From Bacteroidales bacterium (lineage in GTDB: Bacteria; Bacteroidota; Bacteroidia; Bacteroidales; VadinHA17): a stretch of DNA of 64,000 bases. The position numbers and the translations under genes were made by a program. The stretch is taken from assembly GCA_029932855.1 (NCBI GenBank), contig JAOZPG010000015.1, positions 1 through 64,000 on the forward strand, in the 5' to 3' direction. Shown piece after piece: positions 55,555 to 64,000 of the stretch (position 1 is the first letter of the stretch; each line of letters opens with the position of its first letter). Below the pieces are notes generated by a model, which was given only the letters and a program-made list of their open reading frames with translations, was not told the origin of the DNA and did not search any database.

Positions 55555-55632
55555 AAAAAAACGACCTCCGGGGAGGCCGCTTTAAATGTTTTCACAACGG
55601 AATAATCCTTATTGTGAATTGCTCAAATTGTA
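55555..55632 (-). ncRNA. tracrRNA of the type II-C system
   Basis: Plus strand 55611-55632 ATTGTGAATTGCTCAAATTGTA matches the CRISPR repeat GTTGTGAATTGCTTTCAAATTGTA (2-nt gap); the minus-strand RNA is complementary to crRNA and ends in GCGGCCTCCCCGGAGGTCGTTTTTTT hairpin-plus-U-tract. Confidence 0.9.
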
Positions 55633-55636
55633 ATAA

Positions 55637-55644
55637 CAAAGATA
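55637..55644 (-). promoter_or_regulatory. Bacteroidota -7 element (TATCTTTG) of the tracrRNA promoter
   Basis: Perfect TAnnTTTG match on the minus strand, about 5-8 nt upstream of the anti-repeat start. Confidence 0.65.
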
Positions 55645-55674: not shown

Positions 55675-58600
55675 ATGAAGAAGATATTAGGATTGGACAT
55701 TGGTACTACATCTATTGGATGGGCTTATGTATATGAAGCAGAAAATAATAATGAGAAATCCTTGATCAAGAAGTTAGGTGTAAGGATTATTCCAATTTCA
55801 ACAGATGAGGAAAATGATTTTCAGAAGGGTAAATCAATTACTATAAATGCTGATCGTACTCTTAAAAGAAGTATGAGACGAAACCTGCAACGATATAAAC
55901 TGAGGAGAAATGCACTCATTACTATTTTGAAGGAGCAAGGCTTAATAGATGCAGATACTGTTCTTGCAGAAAACAATAATAATTCAACCTTTGAAACATA
56001 CAGATTACGTGCCGAAGCTGCCAAAAAGAGAATAGCAAAAGAAGAGTTTGCCAGGGTTCTACTTATGATAAATAAAAAAAGGGGGTATAAGAGTAGCCGT
56101 AAGGCAAAAAACGAGGAAGAGGGAAGCTTAATTAACGGTATGGATGTAGCGAAGCAACTGTACGAAGAAGGATTAACTCCTGGGCAATTAGTATATAATA
56201 TATTGATGAAAGGAGGGAAGATAATACCTGAATTTTACAAGTCTGACTTGTTAAATGAATTCGATAAAATCTGGAACTTTCAGAAAGGATTTTTCCCAGA
56301 TTTATTAACCGATGATTTCTATGAACAGTTGAAGAATAAAGGGAAAAGAGCGACTTCACAGTTATTCTTTGCGAAGTACAATGTTTATACTTCTGAAAAT
56401 AAGGGTAGCCGGGATGAGAAAAGAAAACAAGCATATAAATGGAGGAGTCAGGCTGTTAATACAAGGCTTTCAATCGAGGAGCTTGCTTTTGTTTTAACGG
56501 AGATAAACAATAATATAAATAGTTCAAGCGGTTATCTTGGAAAAATTAGTGATTATAGTAAGGAATTGTATTTTAATAAAGAAACGGTTGGACAATATCA
56601 GTATAAACAACTTGTAAATAATCCCCATACAAGGCTAAAAGACCAAGTATTTTTTAGGCAGGATTATCTGGATGAATTTGAAAAGATATGGGAGGTGCAA
56701 TCCAAATATTATCCTGTACTAACAGATGAGCTAAAAACTGAGATCAGGGATGTTATAATATTTTATCAAAGAAGACTTAAGTCACAAAAGCACCTTATTA
56801 GCAACTGTGAATTTGAGAGATACCATAAAGTTATTCCTAAATCATCTCCCTTGTTTCAGGAATTTAAGATTTGGCAGGTAATTAATAATATTAAAATGGT
56901 CAACTTAGAGGAGATTGGAGATGAGGCCTTGTCGCAAGATCAGAAGAATCTGTTGTTCAGGGAACTACAGTATGTTGCTACAGCAAAAAAAGTTAAAGTC
57001 TTAAATATCCTTGGTCTTAACCCCAAGAAGTATGATCTCAATTTTAAGGAATCCATAGAAGGTAACCGGACAAATGCAGCTATTTTTGAGGCTTTTCAGA
57101 AGATTCTGGATATTGAAGGCTATCTGATGGATTTTGAGAAAATGAGAGCTGAGGATATTTATGATGAAATTCATTCTGTTTTTTCTGACATCGGAATTGA
57201 TACAGGTCTATTAAGATTTGATTCTACACTTGTAGGAGAGAATCTTTTCAAACAACCTGCCTATATGTTGTGGCATCTTCTATATTCTTTTGAGGATGAT
57301 AACGATAAGCTGTATAGTAAGCTTCAAGAAAAGTATGGTTTCAAAATAATTCATGCAAAAATAATTTCTAATATTTCATTACAACAGGATCATGGGAATC
57401 TGAGTGCGAGGGCAATTAGAAAGATTTTGCCATTTATGAGAAAAGGGGATCGTTATGATGAAGCATGTGTTAAGGCTGGATATAATCATTCATTTTCAAG
57501 AACTAAAGAGGAGCAAAGATCAAGAGAGTTAAAGGATAAGCTTGAAGTATTTCCGAAGAATAGCCTAAGAAACCCTGTCGTAGAAAAGATCCTTAGTCAA
57601 ATGAGTAATTTGGTTAATGCTATAATTGATGATAATGAGCTGGGAAGACCCGACGAAATACGTATTGAGCTTGCACGTGAGCTAAAGAAGAGTGCAAAAG
57701 AACGCGATGAAATGACAAAGGGAATAAGCAGGGCAACAAAAAGACATCAGGAGATAAGGGAATTGTTGCAAACTGAATTTCACATTAATAAAGTCACACG
57801 TAATGATATAATTCGCTATAAGCTATATGAGGAGCTGGCTGCCAATGGATATAAGACATTATATATGAATAAATATATACCCCAGGAAAAGTTGTTTTCA
57901 AAAGAGTTTGATATTGATCATATTATCCCTCAGTCAAGATTGTTTGATGATTCATTTTCAAATAAAACGCTTGCGAAAAGAGAAATCAATATTGAAAAGG
58001 GGAACAAGACCGCATATGATTATCTGGTAGTTAAACTTAGTGAAGAAGATTTTAGTCAATATCTTCTAAGAGTGAAAGATATGTATAAAGATCGTAAGTT
58101 AACAAAAGCAAAGTATCAGAAGCTTTTAATGAAGGAATCTGATATTCCTGATGATTTTATTGAAAGAGATCTTCGGAACAGTCAGTATATTTCAAAAATG
58201 GCAAGACAGGTGCTAGAGGAAGTAGTCAGGGATGTTACAACTACCACGGGTAGTATAACTGATAGATTGAGAAAAGACTGGCAGCTTATTGATGTAATGA
58301 AGGAGCTCAATTTCTCAAAATACAGGGAATTAGGGTTAACAGAAACTATTGAAGGTAAGAATGGAAAGATGGAGGAACGAATTATTGAATGGACGAAGAG
58401 GAATGATCACCGTCATCATGCAATGGATGCCCTGACTGTTGCCTTTACAAAACTAAATCATGTGCAATATTTGAATAACCTCAATGCCAGAAGTGATAAA
58501 AGTAGTAGCATATATGGCATTGAGCAAAAGGAGTTATACAGGGATAAGAATAATAGAGTTCTTTTTAAACCGCCAATTCCACTGGATGAGTTCCGGTCAG

Positions 58601-59733
58601 AAGCAAAAAAACATCTAGAGTCTCTGCTGGTTTCATTTAAGGCAAAGAATAAAGTTGTAACCAGAAACCTTAATAAAACCAGGAAATTGGGTAAGGATAA
58701 CTATAACAAACAAATATCATTGACTCCCCGTGGTCAATTACATAAAGAAACTATTTATGGGAGGATTCGTAAGTATGTAACAAAGGAAGAAAAGGTAGGA
58801 GTCAGGTTTAACATAGATACAGTTGAAAAGATTGCAGTAAAAAGGTACAGGAAAGCCATTTTAAAACGTTTAATTGATAATGGATATGATCCGAAAAAAG
58901 CCTTTACCGGGAAAAATAATCCGGTAAAGAATCCACTATTTGTTGATGAATTACATACAGAACAGTTGCCTGAGAAGGTTAAGCTGGTTTGGCTTGAGGA
59001 GTTATATACTATAAGAAAAAATATTGATCCCAAACTGAAAATTGAAAAAGTAATTGATAAGAAGATTCAAAGAATTCTTAAACAAAGGTTAAAGGAATAT
59101 GATAATGACCCGAAAAAAGCATTTATTAATCTTGATCGGAACCCTATCTGGTTAAATAAGGACAAGGGGATCTCAATTAAAAGGGTTACGATCTCGGGGG
59201 TAAGCAATGCAGAACCCTTGCATGAAAAAACCGATCATTTGGGCAAATCTGTTCTTGATAAAAATGGGAATCCAATACCTGTAGATTTTGTGAGTACGGG
59301 CAATAATCATCATGTAGCAATATACAGAGATGAAAAAGGGAATCTACATGAAGAGGTCGTTTCATTTTATGAAGCCGTTCATAGGGTTAATATGGGTGTT
59401 CCGATAATAAATAAGGAGCATTTTAAGGGTTGGCAGTTTCTATTCTCAATTAAGCAAAACGAGTATTTTGTTTTTCCATCTGATGGATTTGATCCTTCTG
59501 AGGTTGATTTGCTTAATCCTGATAATTTTTCTTTAATTAGTCCTAATCTTTTTAGAGTGCAAAAGATTGCAACATTAAATTATTTCTTTCGCCACCACCT
59601 TGAGACTCAACTCATTAATAGAAATGAAACAAAAGAGGTTACATATTATAATATTAGGAGTCTTCTTAGGTTAGAGGGACTTATAAAGGTTAGATTAAAT
59701 CATCTTGGGAATATTGTTGAAGTAGGGGAATAA
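55675..59733 (+). CDS. cas9: Type II-C CRISPR-associated endonuclease Cas9
   Basis: RuvC-I LGLDIGTTSIGWAYV; Arg-rich bridge helix RTLKRSMRRNLQRYKLRR; RuvC-II IRIELARELKKSAKER; HNH FDIDHIIPQSRLFDDSFSNKTL; RuvC-III DHRHHAMDALTVAF. Confidence 0.98.
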   Translation: MKKILGLDIGTTSIGWAYVYEAENNNEKSLIKKLGVRIIPISTDEENDFQKGKSITINADRTLKRSMRRNLQRYKLRRNALITILKEQGLIDADTVLAENNNNSTFETYRLRAEAAKKRIAKEEFARVLLMINKKRGYKSSRKAKNEEEGSLINGMDVAKQLYEEGLTPGQLVYNILMKGGKIIPEFYKSDLLNEFDKIWNFQKGFFPDLLTDDFYEQLKNKGKRATSQLFFAKYNVYTSENKGSRDEKRKQAYKWRSQAVNTRLSIEELAFVLTEINNNINSSSGYLGKISDYSKELYFNKETVGQYQYKQLVNNPHTRLKDQVFFRQDYLDEFEKIWEVQSKYYPVLTDELKTEIRDVIIFYQRRLKSQKHLISNCEFERYHKVIPKSSPLFQEFKIWQVINNIKMVNLEEIGDEALSQDQKNLLFRELQYVATAKKVKVLNILGLNPKKYDLNFKESIEGNRTNAAIFEAFQKILDIEGYLMDFEKMRAEDIYDEIHSVFSDIGIDTGLLRFDSTLVGENLFKQPAYMLWHLLYSFEDDNDKLYSKLQEKYGFKIIHAKIISNISLQQDHGNLSARAIRKILPFMRKGDRYDEACVKAGYNHSFSRTKEEQRSRELKDKLEVFPKNSLRNPVVEKILSQMSNLVNAIIDDNELGRPDEIRIELARELKKSAKERDEMTKGISRATKRHQEIRELLQTEFHINKVTRNDIIRYKLYEELAANGYKTLYMNKYIPQEKLFSKEFDIDHIIPQSRLFDDSFSNKTLAKREINIEKGNKTAYDYLVVKLSEEDFSQYLLRVKDMYKDRKLTKAKYQKLLMKESDIPDDFIERDLRNSQYISKMARQVLEEVVRDVTTTTGSITDRLRKDWQLIDVMKELNFSKYRELGLTETIEGKNGKMEERIIEWTKRNDHRHHAMDALTVAFTKLNHVQYLNNLNARSDKSSSIYGIEQKELYRDKNNRVLFKPPIPLDEFRSEAKKHLESLLVSFKAKNKVVTRNLNKTRKLGKDNYNKQISLTPRGQLHKETIYGRIRKYVTKEEKVGVRFNIDTVEKIAVKRYRKAILKRLIDNGYDPKKAFTGKNNPVKNPLFVDELHTEQLPEKVKLVWLEELYTIRKNIDPKLKIEKVIDKKIQRILKQRLKEYDNDPKKAFINLDRNPIWLNKDKGISIKRVTISGVSNAEPLHEKTDHLGKSVLDKNGNPIPVDFVSTGNNHHVAIYRDEKGNLHEEVVSFYEAVHRVNMGVPIINKEHFKGWQFLFSIKQNEYFVFPSDGFDPSEVDLLNPDNFSLISPNLFRVQKIATLNYFFRHHLETQLINRNETKEVTYYNIRSLLRLEGLIKVRLNHLGNIVEVGE

Positions 59734-59744
59734 GTTTAATAGAA

Positions 59745-60644
59745 ATGATAAAACGAACACTTTTTTTTGAGAATCCCTGCTATCTAAGAAAGAAACAGGA
59801 ACAACTTATTATTGAATTTCCTGAGGGTGAAAAAGAAGACAGGTCTGTACCAATTGAAGATATTGGCGTTGTTGTATTGGATAATTCAAGAATAACAATT
59901 ACTCAAGGATTATTGGCGACACTATCGGAGAATAATGCGGCAATAATAAATTGTGATTCCAGGCATATGCCTTTTTCCTTAATGTTACCAACAGCAGTGC
60001 ACAATGCATATACAGAGAAGCTTCGATTTCAGCTTGAAGCATCATTGCCGCTTAAGAAGAATTTGTGGCAACAGACAGTTGTGGCCAAAATCAATAACCA
60101 GGCTGCATTGCTCGATAAATATGATATTGATTCAAAAAGGCTTAAGTATTTGGCAGGTATTGTAAAAAGTGATGATGTTGAAAATTGTGAAGGAAGGGCT
60201 GCTTCTTATTATTGGAAAGTATTGTTTTCTGAAGCTGAGGGTTTTAAGAGGCAGAGGTATGGAGGACCTCCAAATAACTTGCTAAATTATGGTTATGCTG
60301 TCTTAAGGGCAGTAGTTGCAAGATCTCTTGTGGCAAGTGGTCTTTTATCAGCAATGGGAATTCATCACAGAAATAAATATAACCCTTATTGTCTTGCTGA
60401 CGATATAATGGAACCATACAGACCTTTTGTTGATGACATTATTGTGCAGATAGCTGCAAGTTATGTGGATATTAATGAGCTTACAGGGGATATTAAGAAG
60501 ATGTTATTACAAATACCTGTTCTTGATATATTAATAGAAGGGCAAAGAAGCCCTCTTATGGTTGGTATGCAGAGGACAACAGCTTCATTAATGCAGTGTT
60601 TTGAGGGAGGATCAAGAAAATTGATTTATCCTGAGTTAGAATGA
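59745..60644 (+). CDS. cas1: CRISPR-associated integrase Cas1 (type II)
   Basis: KRTLFFENPCYLRKKQEQLIIEF, VPIEDIGVVVLDN, LNYGYAVLRAVVARSLVASGL; position between cas9 and cas2. Confidence 0.97.
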   Translation: MIKRTLFFENPCYLRKKQEQLIIEFPEGEKEDRSVPIEDIGVVVLDNSRITITQGLLATLSENNAAIINCDSRHMPFSLMLPTAVHNAYTEKLRFQLEASLPLKKNLWQQTVVAKINNQAALLDKYDIDSKRLKYLAGIVKSDDVENCEGRAASYYWKVLFSEAEGFKRQRYGGPPNNLLNYGYAVLRAVVARSLVASGLLSAMGIHHRNKYNPYCLADDIMEPYRPFVDDIIVQIAASYVDINELTGDIKKMLLQIPVLDILIEGQRSPLMVGMQRTTASLMQCFEGGSRKLIYPELE

Positions 60645-60982
60645 CAAAGATACCAAGACTAAATCAATACCGTATTGTGTGGGTTCTCGTATCATTTGAT
60701 CTTCCGACAGATACTAAAAAAGACAGGAAGAATTATGCCTTATTCAGGAAAAGATTAGTTAAGGATGGATTTACTATGTTACAATATTCAATTTATATCC
60801 GTCATTCCAGTAGCAGGGAAAATGCAGATGTACATCAAAAAAGGGTTAAATCTATTCTTCCACCAAAAGGAGAAGTAATTATGTTCAGCCTTACGGATAA
60901 ACAATTTGAAATGATGGAATTTTTCAGAGGACCAAAAGAATCATATCGTCCGGATACTCCTCAGCAACTTGAACTATTTTGA
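60641..60982 (+). CDS. cas2: CRISPR-associated Cas2
   Basis: VWVLVSFDLPTDTKKDRKNYALFRKRLVKDGFTMLQYSIYIRH; ATGA overlap with cas1. Confidence 0.97.
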   Translation: MTKIPRLNQYRIVWVLVSFDLPTDTKKDRKNYALFRKRLVKDGFTMLQYSIYIRHSSSRENADVHQKRVKSILPPKGEVIMFSLTDKQFEMMEFFRGPKESYRPDTPQQLELF

Positions 60983-61090: not shown

Positions 61091-64000
61091 ACTGTGTCAA
61101 AGATCGTTAATCTACAATTTGAAAGCAATTCACAACACTGACGAAGATCTATTATCCGAGCTTAAACTGTGTCAAAGATCGTTAATCTACAATTTGAAAG
61201 CAATTCACAACAAACCGGGATATTAATTGCGTAATCCTCACACTGTGTCAAAGATCGTTAATCTACAATTTGAAAGCAATTCACAACGTCAAGGTCTGTG
61301 TTTATCTGCATTGAGGCACTGTGTCAAAGATCGTTAATCTACAATTTGAAAGCAATTCACAACGCAGGATTAATCATCTTTTTAATACCTGTGACTGTGT
61401 CAAAGATCGTTAATCTACAATTTGAAAGCAATTCACAACCATCAGCCAGGGAAATTATGAATAACAACCACTGTGTCAAAGATCGTTAATCTACAATTTG
61501 AAAGCAATTCACAACGGAGAAAAAAATACAGAAAGAGTTCATTTAACTGTGTCAAAGATCGTTAATCTACAATTTGAAAGCAATTCACAACGCCAAAAAC
61601 TCATTCATCATGCCTATCTCTCACTGTGTCAAAGATCGTTAATCTACAATTTGAAAGCAATTCACAACAACCCCGTAACGATAGGAAAATTATTGGAAAC
61701 TGTGTCAAAGATCGTTAATCTACAATTTGAAAGCAATTCACAACTCCAAATCGTTATACAGAGTCCTAAATAACTGTGTCAAAGATCGTTAATCTACAAT
61801 TTGAAAGCAATTCACAACGTATTGCAAGCTTTTGGTTTTTAGGGCTTAACTGTGTCAAAGATCGTTAATCTACAATTTGAAAGCAATTCACAACTAACCG
61901 GCAAAAATGTAGAGATTGTTATAAACTGTGTCAAAGATCGTTAATCTACAATTTGAAAGCAATTCACAACTGACGTTGTTCAGGCTGGTATTGCGAAAAC
62001 TACTGTGTCAAAGATCGTTAATCTACAATTTGAAAGCAATTCACAACTCAATCCATGAATTAGCAATAAGGGAAAAGACTGTGTCAAAGATCGTTAATCT
62101 ACAATTTGAAAGCAATTCACAACACAGAGCCGGAAAGGATAACAGATCGCACCACTGTGTCAAAGATCGTTAATCTACAATTTGAAAGCAATTCACAACG
62201 ACCAGCTTCGGGGACTACGCCATAATTCAACTGTGTCAAAGATCGTTAATCTACAATTTGAAAGCAATTCACAACTGAGCTGTTATTTGATGAAGATATA
62301 GAGGAACTGTGTCAAAGATCGTTAATCTACAATTTGAAAGCAATTCACAACTTATCGACCCCTCGTACTCAACAGATGCCACTGTGTCAAAGATCGTTAA
62401 TCTACAATTTGAAAGCAATTCACAACAATAGATAGAAGAGAAATAGAAGAAAGCAACTGTGTCAAAGATCGTTAATCTACAATTTGAAAGCAATTCACAA
62501 CAAGACAAGCACAGATAATTACGGTCTTCGGGCACTGTGTCAAAGATCGTTAATCTACAATTTGAAAGCAATTCACAACATTTATTTTGACTGACTTTTT
62601 TTTGAGTCTACTGTGTCAAAGATCGTTAATCTACAATTTGAAAGCAATTCACAACACCAGCCATAGCTTTGACAGGACAATAAACACTGTGTCAAAGATC
62701 GTTAATCTACAATTTGAAAGCAATTCACAACAATCAATTTATTATAACTGATGATTTTAGGACTGTGTCAAAGATCGTTAATCTACAATTTGAAAGCAAT
62801 TCACAACGCCTTCATTTTCATCTGCGTTTGTTGCTATACTGTGTCAAAGATCGTTAATCTACAATTTGAAAGCAATTCACAACAAGTAAAAGCAATGAAA
62901 TAAATATCCTGAAAACTGTGTCAAAGATCGTTAATCTACAATTTGAAAGCAATTCACAACGTCTGGTTGTTTATATTCTATTTTCTTCCCTACTGTGTCA
63001 AAGATCGTTAATCTACAATTTGAAAGCAATTCACAACGATAAGTGAAACAGGAAACAATAAATTGGACTGTGTCAAAGATCGTTAATCTACAATTTGAAA
63101 GCAATTCACAACCTTGATGATTTGTTCCTTTCTTTTTATATACTGTGTCAAAGATCGTTAATCTACAATTTGAAAGCAATTCACAACTTAACCGTAAACA
63201 CAAAAAAAAATAAAGAACTGTGTCAAAGATCGTTAATCTACAATTTGAAAGCAATTCACAACTTTAATTATTTGTTCCTTTCTTTTTATATCACTGTGTC
63301 AAAGATCGTTAATCTACAATTTGAAAGCAATTCACAACTCCTGCTATTCTCTTTGCAACAATTGATTCACTGTGTCAAAGATCGTTAATCTACAATTTGA
63401 AAGCAATTCACAACTTTGTCCGTAGCATCTCCATTAGCATATTACTGTGTCAAAGATCGTTAATCTACAATTTGAAAGCAATTCACAACTGTCAGAGAAT
63501 ACTTGCGCTTCTTTCGGGTACTGTGTCAAAGATCGTTAATCTACAATTTGAAAGCAATTCACAACCATTTGATAAAATGTATCTTGAGGCCGAAAACTGT
63601 GTCAAAGATCGTTAATCTACAATTTGAAAGCAATTCACAACGGTCATTCTCTGTCATATCTCCTGCCTGGAAACTGTGTCAAAGATCGTTAATCTACAAT
63701 TTGAAAGCAATTCACAACGCATTGGCAGATATATATTTGCCATATCTAACTGTGTCAAAGATCGTTAATCTACAATTTGAAAGCAATTCACAACGCAGAG
63801 GCTAAGTTTAAAGACTACCAGGTTACTGTGTCAAAGATCGTTAATCTACAATTTGAAAGCAATTCACAACGTTATTCGGTATTTTCCTAGTGTTACAAAG
63901 ACTGTGTCAAAGATCGTTAATCTACAATTTGAAAGCAATTCACAACAGTTTCTTCTAGTTCTTTCATAGTCTTTTACTGTGTCAAAGATCGTTAATCTAC
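61091..64000 (-). CRISPR. CRISPR array: 39 repeats (38 complete), 38 spacers of 28-32 nt, continuing beyond the window
   Basis: 46-bp repeat ACTGTGTCAAAGATCGTTAATCTACAATTTGAAAGCAATTCACAAC on the + strand (crRNA sense GTTGTGAATTGCTTTCAAATTGTAGATTAACGATCTTTGACACAGT), period 74-78; repeats look identical by eye. Minus-strand transcription inferred from the tracrRNA anti-repeat. Confidence 0.99.

What the first reader, a model, noticed from the sequence alone, without database searches (positions are those of the whole stretch)
63113..63292. Two spacers in the same register encode the same peptide and differ only at three synonymous positions in the PAM-proximal seed
In crRNA sense, the spacer at 63113-63141 is ATATAAAAAGAAAGGAACAAATCATCAAG and the spacer at 63263-63292 is GATATAAAAAGAAAGGAACAAATAATTAAA. 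They share 22 contiguous nt and differ only at positions 1, 4 and 7 counted from the repeat-adjacent 3' end, which is the Cas9 seed. In the frame that places these at codon position 3, both read IKRKEQIIK (ATC/ATA, ATC/ATT and AAG/AAA are synonymous). This implies two acquisitions from the same protospacer register of a conserved protein-coding target in two diverged alleles, with differences exactly where they would disrupt Cas9 targeting. It fits re-immunisation after seed escape, or paired coverage of related phages; a single spacer lies between them. The shared register and codon pattern are direct observation; the escape/re-acquisition history is inference.
Basis: partly seen in the sequence, partly recalled or inferred. 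Interest (0 to 1): 0.8.

Follow-up and report, generated by a model that had tools for sequence, protein, structure and literature searches.

The report
Twin CRISPR spacers with seed mismatches
A bacterial CRISPR memory array holds two almost identical entries that differ only in the part the Cas9 enzyme reads most strictly, most likely because the cell sampled the same spot of two related invaders, a pattern that also turns up in a few related arrays.

Summary
Spacers 27 (63113-63141) and 29 (63263-63292) of a type II-C array share 22 contiguous nt and differ only at positions 1, 4 and 7 from the PAM-side end; no other of the 40 spacers pairs this way. A tracrRNA anti-repeat beside cas9 confirms the crRNA strand. 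Independent acquisition from two homologous targets is the best reading: same PAM-side register, a 1-nt difference at the free end, changes one codon apart, and 40 letter-perfect repeats.

The coding claim is only partly secure. The opposite strand is also open, has its wobble positions at the same three sites, and reads LMICSFLFI/LIICSFLFI, like a signal-peptide core. No protospacer was found in viral contigs, species genomes, phages, plasmids or 117 family genomes, so target and PAM are unknown.

In 103 related arrays (2,381 spacers) I found five more such pairs. Two others have only codon-spaced changes; one matches a phage DNA polymerase motif. All six differ within the last 3 PAM-side nt (p about 0.0005; 0.0014 without this pair). 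This fits seed-escape or seed-mismatched alleles being resampled: a known kind of process, recorded unusually cleanly. In-situ escape remains inference.

The parts
63113..63141 (-). Spacer 27 (29 nt), crRNA sense ATATAAAAAGAAAGGAACAAATCATCAAG
63263..63292 (-). Spacer 29 (30 nt), crRNA sense GATATAAAAAGAAAGGAACAAATAATTAAA
63188..63216 (-). Spacer 28, the single unrelated spacer between the pair
61091..64000 (-). CRISPR array: 40 letter-perfect 46-nt repeats at 61091-64096 of the contig, and a 41st copy with a degenerate end just beyond; continues past the window edge
55675..59733 (+). cas9 (1352 aa; TIGR01865, 523 bits)
59745..60644 (+). cas1 (type II, TIGR03639)
60641..60982 (+). cas2 (TIGR01573); no csn2 or cas4 between it and the array, hence subtype II-C
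55555..55640 (-). Probable tracrRNA: anti-repeat at 55612-55632, then a G+C-rich hairpin with a T run near 55555-55580
   Evidence: anti-repeat; RNA ends inferred from sequence

Best explanation
The spacers are two independent acquisitions by this type II-C system from the same PAM-anchored site of two related invaders whose sequences differ at three codon-spaced positions. The PAM fixed the repeat-adjacent end of both (same register) while the free end was cut one nucleotide apart (29 against 30 nt). The second allele could be sampled because the crRNA from the first mismatched it in the seed and did not prevent infection. Shown: anatomy, crRNA strand, shared register, recurrence in sister arrays. 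Inferred: phage target, coding function, the order (29 before 27 if II-C arrays grow at the crRNA 3' end, as reported), and failure of cross-cleavage.
For: 26/29 identity with 22 contiguous nt. Differences at 1, 4, 7, all synonymous in one frame. Lengths 29 and 30 differ only at the free end, while all 40 repeats are identical, so duplication plus mutation would need four changes in 30 nt and none in 1,840 nt of repeats. tracrRNA supports the crRNA sense. Survey of 103 related arrays, 2,381 spacers: five further pairs (L091, L101, L109, L115, L206), three of them in the identical register and two shifted by 1 nt. The L091 pair has six differences, all three-spaced, and reads GYQGSEGA(I/M), which in a viral contig is a motif of a 650-aa DNA polymerase A-like protein. 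The L206 pair also has only three-spaced, synonymous changes. No pair of spacers from different arrays reaches this similarity over the full length. All six pairs differ within 3 nt of the PAM side; scan-corrected p 0.00055, or 0.0014 without this pair.
Against: No protospacer or PAM found. Two sister pairs (L101, L115) lack the codon pattern. One array (L123) shows that noisy near-duplicates can also arise by duplication plus error. Only six pairs underlie the seed statistic.
Confidence: 0.8

Rival explanations
1. In-situ escape: the invader sampled first gained seed changes under Cas9 pressure and the escaped lineage was sampled again (a narrower form of the best explanation).
For: Differences hug the PAM side in all six pairs. 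Under Cas9 pressure phage target mutations were confined to PAM and seed in PMC10132644.
Against: Three changes at successive wobble positions look like ordinary allele divergence between related phages; one seed change would be enough to escape.
Confidence: 0.3
2. Array duplication of one spacer followed by mutation.
For: Exact duplicates are common in these arrays (for example blocks in L110 and L172).
Against: The neighbours are not duplicated, all repeats are perfect, changes are codon-spaced and clustered, and the length differs at the free end. Block duplicates found in the survey are letter-identical.
Confidence: 0.08
3. Both spacers come from one invader that carries two paralogous copies of the sequence (for example a repeated signal-peptide start).
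For: The antisense frame resembles a signal-peptide core, and one viral gene start (L012) is seed-perfect to spacer 29 at 25/30.
Against: L012 and its relatives show only one such site and match no other spacer.
Confidence: 0.1
4. The target is non-coding, such as a ribosome-binding region, and the spacing of three is chance.
For: Several pattern hits are AAAGGAG-N-ATG start regions.
Against: Single-phase changes within the last 7 nt have a chance of 2.7e-4, and two sister pairs show the same phase pattern.
Confidence: 0.1

Closest known systems
Type II-C CRISPR-Cas of Bacteroidota (B. fragilis type, PMC9367070)
   Same: cas9-cas1-cas2, 46-47 nt repeats beginning GTTGTGA-TTGCTTTCA, 30-nt spacers, tracrRNA next to cas9
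   Different: Nothing in the system itself; its PAM is unknown here
Seed and PAM escape followed by new spacer acquisition (PMC10132644 for Cas9 escape mutations)
   Same: Changes concentrate next to the PAM
   Different: Here two alleles of one site are archived in one natural array; experiments usually show new spacers elsewhere in the phage (general knowledge)

Membership tests
Type II-C CRISPR-Cas | Cas9 with HNH and RuvC | tested here: met
   HNH_4, RuvC_III; TIGR01865
Type II-C CRISPR-Cas | Only cas9, cas1 and cas2; no csn2 or cas4 | tested here: met
   array follows cas2 directly; the gene before cas9 reads as a dehydrogenase-like protein
Type II-C CRISPR-Cas | tracrRNA with anti-repeat | tested here: met
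Re-acquisition from a diverged allele of one protospacer | Same PAM-side register, different free end | tested here: met
Re-acquisition from a diverged allele of one protospacer | Two target alleles exist, with a common PAM | tested here: inconclusive
   no protospacer found:
Re-acquisition from a diverged allele of one protospacer | First crRNA fails on the second allele | not testable with these tools
   needs a cleavage or plaque assay

The most novel reading that the evidence does not exclude
In II-C arrays, near-identical spacer pairs are a readable record of seed escape: a second spacer at the same site is kept only when the target differs in the few PAM-adjacent nucleotides, near where Cas9 cuts. 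Natural arrays could then be used to map the functional seed of each Cas9.
Probability: 0.3. Interest if true: 0.6.

Novelty: new member of a known kind. Interest (0 to 1): 0.42.

Why it matters
Escape from Cas9 is mostly known from laboratory phages. Pairs like this record, within one natural array, which target differences led a cell to sample the same site again, and they recur in about 1 of 17 related arrays. A larger survey could measure the natural seed of many II-C Cas9 enzymes without experiments.

Tried and rejected
Exact shared 22-mer in viral contigs: none. Exact pattern in species genomes: none. Wobble patterns gave 24 viral and 8 genome hits, mostly chance: start-site regions or short open frames. 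BLAST against phages and plasmids gave chance matches only. L012, a viral gene start MKKLLIICSFLLIG behind a virion structural gene, looked promising, but neither it nor its related loci match any other spacer. The same repeat was sought in 117 family genomes: only the own array. Patterns for the L101 and L206 pairs: no viral hit. L123 set aside as a noisy duplicated array. Closeness of the paired spacers within arrays was not formally tested and is not used.

Full report
The locus. cas9 (55675-59733), cas1 and cas2 are followed by an array of 40 identical 46-nt repeats, 61091-64096 of the contig, and a 41st copy with a degenerate end beyond the window. An anti-repeat at 55612-55632, pairing with the repeat as minus-strand RNA, fixes the crRNA sense as minus strand, spacer first and then GTTGTG. 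The subtype is II-C.

The pair. Spacers 27 and 29 are as described: 22 contiguous identical nt, three differences at positions 1, 4 and 7 from the end next to the repeat. The next best pair among the array's spacers is at chance level. The shared sequence is nowhere else in the window or the genome, so this is not a self-derived repeat.

In crRNA sense the spacers read IKRKEQIIK, with all differences synonymous. On the opposite strand a second open frame has its third codon positions at the same sites and reads LMICSFLFI and LIICSFLFI, with one Met/Ile change. The latter looks like the core of a signal peptide, and one viral gene start (L012, MKKLLIICSFLLIG) is seed-perfect to spacer 29 with 25/30 overall. 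That hit is not proven: 24 viral stretches match the same loose pattern, and no other spacer matches L012 or its relatives. A third possibility is a ribosome-binding region. The coding strand is therefore open, although the spacing of three favours a coding target.

The search for the target failed in IMG/VR, GTDB species genomes, INPHARED, PLSDB and 117 genomes of the family. The PAM is unknown. For B. fragilis II-C a C at downstream position 6 is reported (PMC9367070), which L012 does not have.

Duplication or two acquisitions? All 40 repeats are identical, the neighbouring spacers are unrelated, the PAM-side ends coincide while the free ends differ by one nucleotide, and the changes are codon-spaced. 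That is what two acquisitions give, not a mutated duplicate.

A yardstick. I collected II-C arrays from the order and class: 103 arrays with 2,381 spacers. Setting aside one noisy array (L123) and one weak partial match (L188, 16/19), six non-identical near-duplicate pairs remain, including this one: L009 (1,4,7), L109 (3), L115 (3,19,27), L101 (1,2,3,19), L091 (3,6,9,24,27,30) and L206 (1,16,25), numbered from the PAM side. Four are in the same register and two are shifted by one. The single-phase pattern holds for L009, L091 and L206. The L091 pair reads GYQGSEGA(I/M), and a wobble search found one viral match, in frame inside a 650-aa protein that reads as a family A DNA polymerase (polymerase assignment by my reading of the sequence). 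No pair between different arrays comes close over the full spacer length, so within-array pairs are not chance.

Seed bias. Eight of 20 differences fall in the last 3 PAM-side nt, against about 2 expected; every pair has one there. The scan-corrected probability is 0.00055, and 0.0014 with this pair left out. The opposite end shows 2 of 20. The sample is small and the cut at 3 nt was chosen after seeing the data, although the correction covers that choice. Cas9 pressure confines phage target mutations to PAM and seed in one experimental study, whose authors note that repair at the cut site may contribute (PMC10132644).

Order. II-C arrays are reported to gain spacers at the 3' end (PMC12638026). 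Here that is the cas2 side, and the degenerate repeat at the other end agrees with it being the old end. Spacer 29 would then be older than 27, with one acquisition between. This is inference.

Conclusion. The finding is real and its main reading, two same-register acquisitions from diverged homologues, is likely (0.8). Escape in place is possible but not separable from sampling of two standing alleles (0.3). It belongs to a known kind of process. The recurring PAM-side difference across arrays is the part worth extending.

Noticed in passing
   Followed up: partly
L172 spacers 12-16 and 21-25; L110 spacers 0-1 and 23-24: Exact block duplications of several spacers inside one array.
   Followed up: no
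L091 spacers 12 and 14; L117 10278-10306: A sister spacer pair with six codon-spaced differences matches a GYQGSEGAM motif in a phage DNA polymerase-like gene.
   Followed up: partly
L012 2247-2699 and relatives L211-L223: A small signal-peptide-bearing phage gene family, in several of these phages directly behind a virion structural gene (phrog_7231 relative); no PHROG match.
   Followed up: partly
window 61091-64000: Forty letter-perfect repeats and no exact spacer duplicate; none of the 40 spacers gave a convincing hit in the phage collection, nor the subset tried in the plasmid collection.
   Followed up: partly
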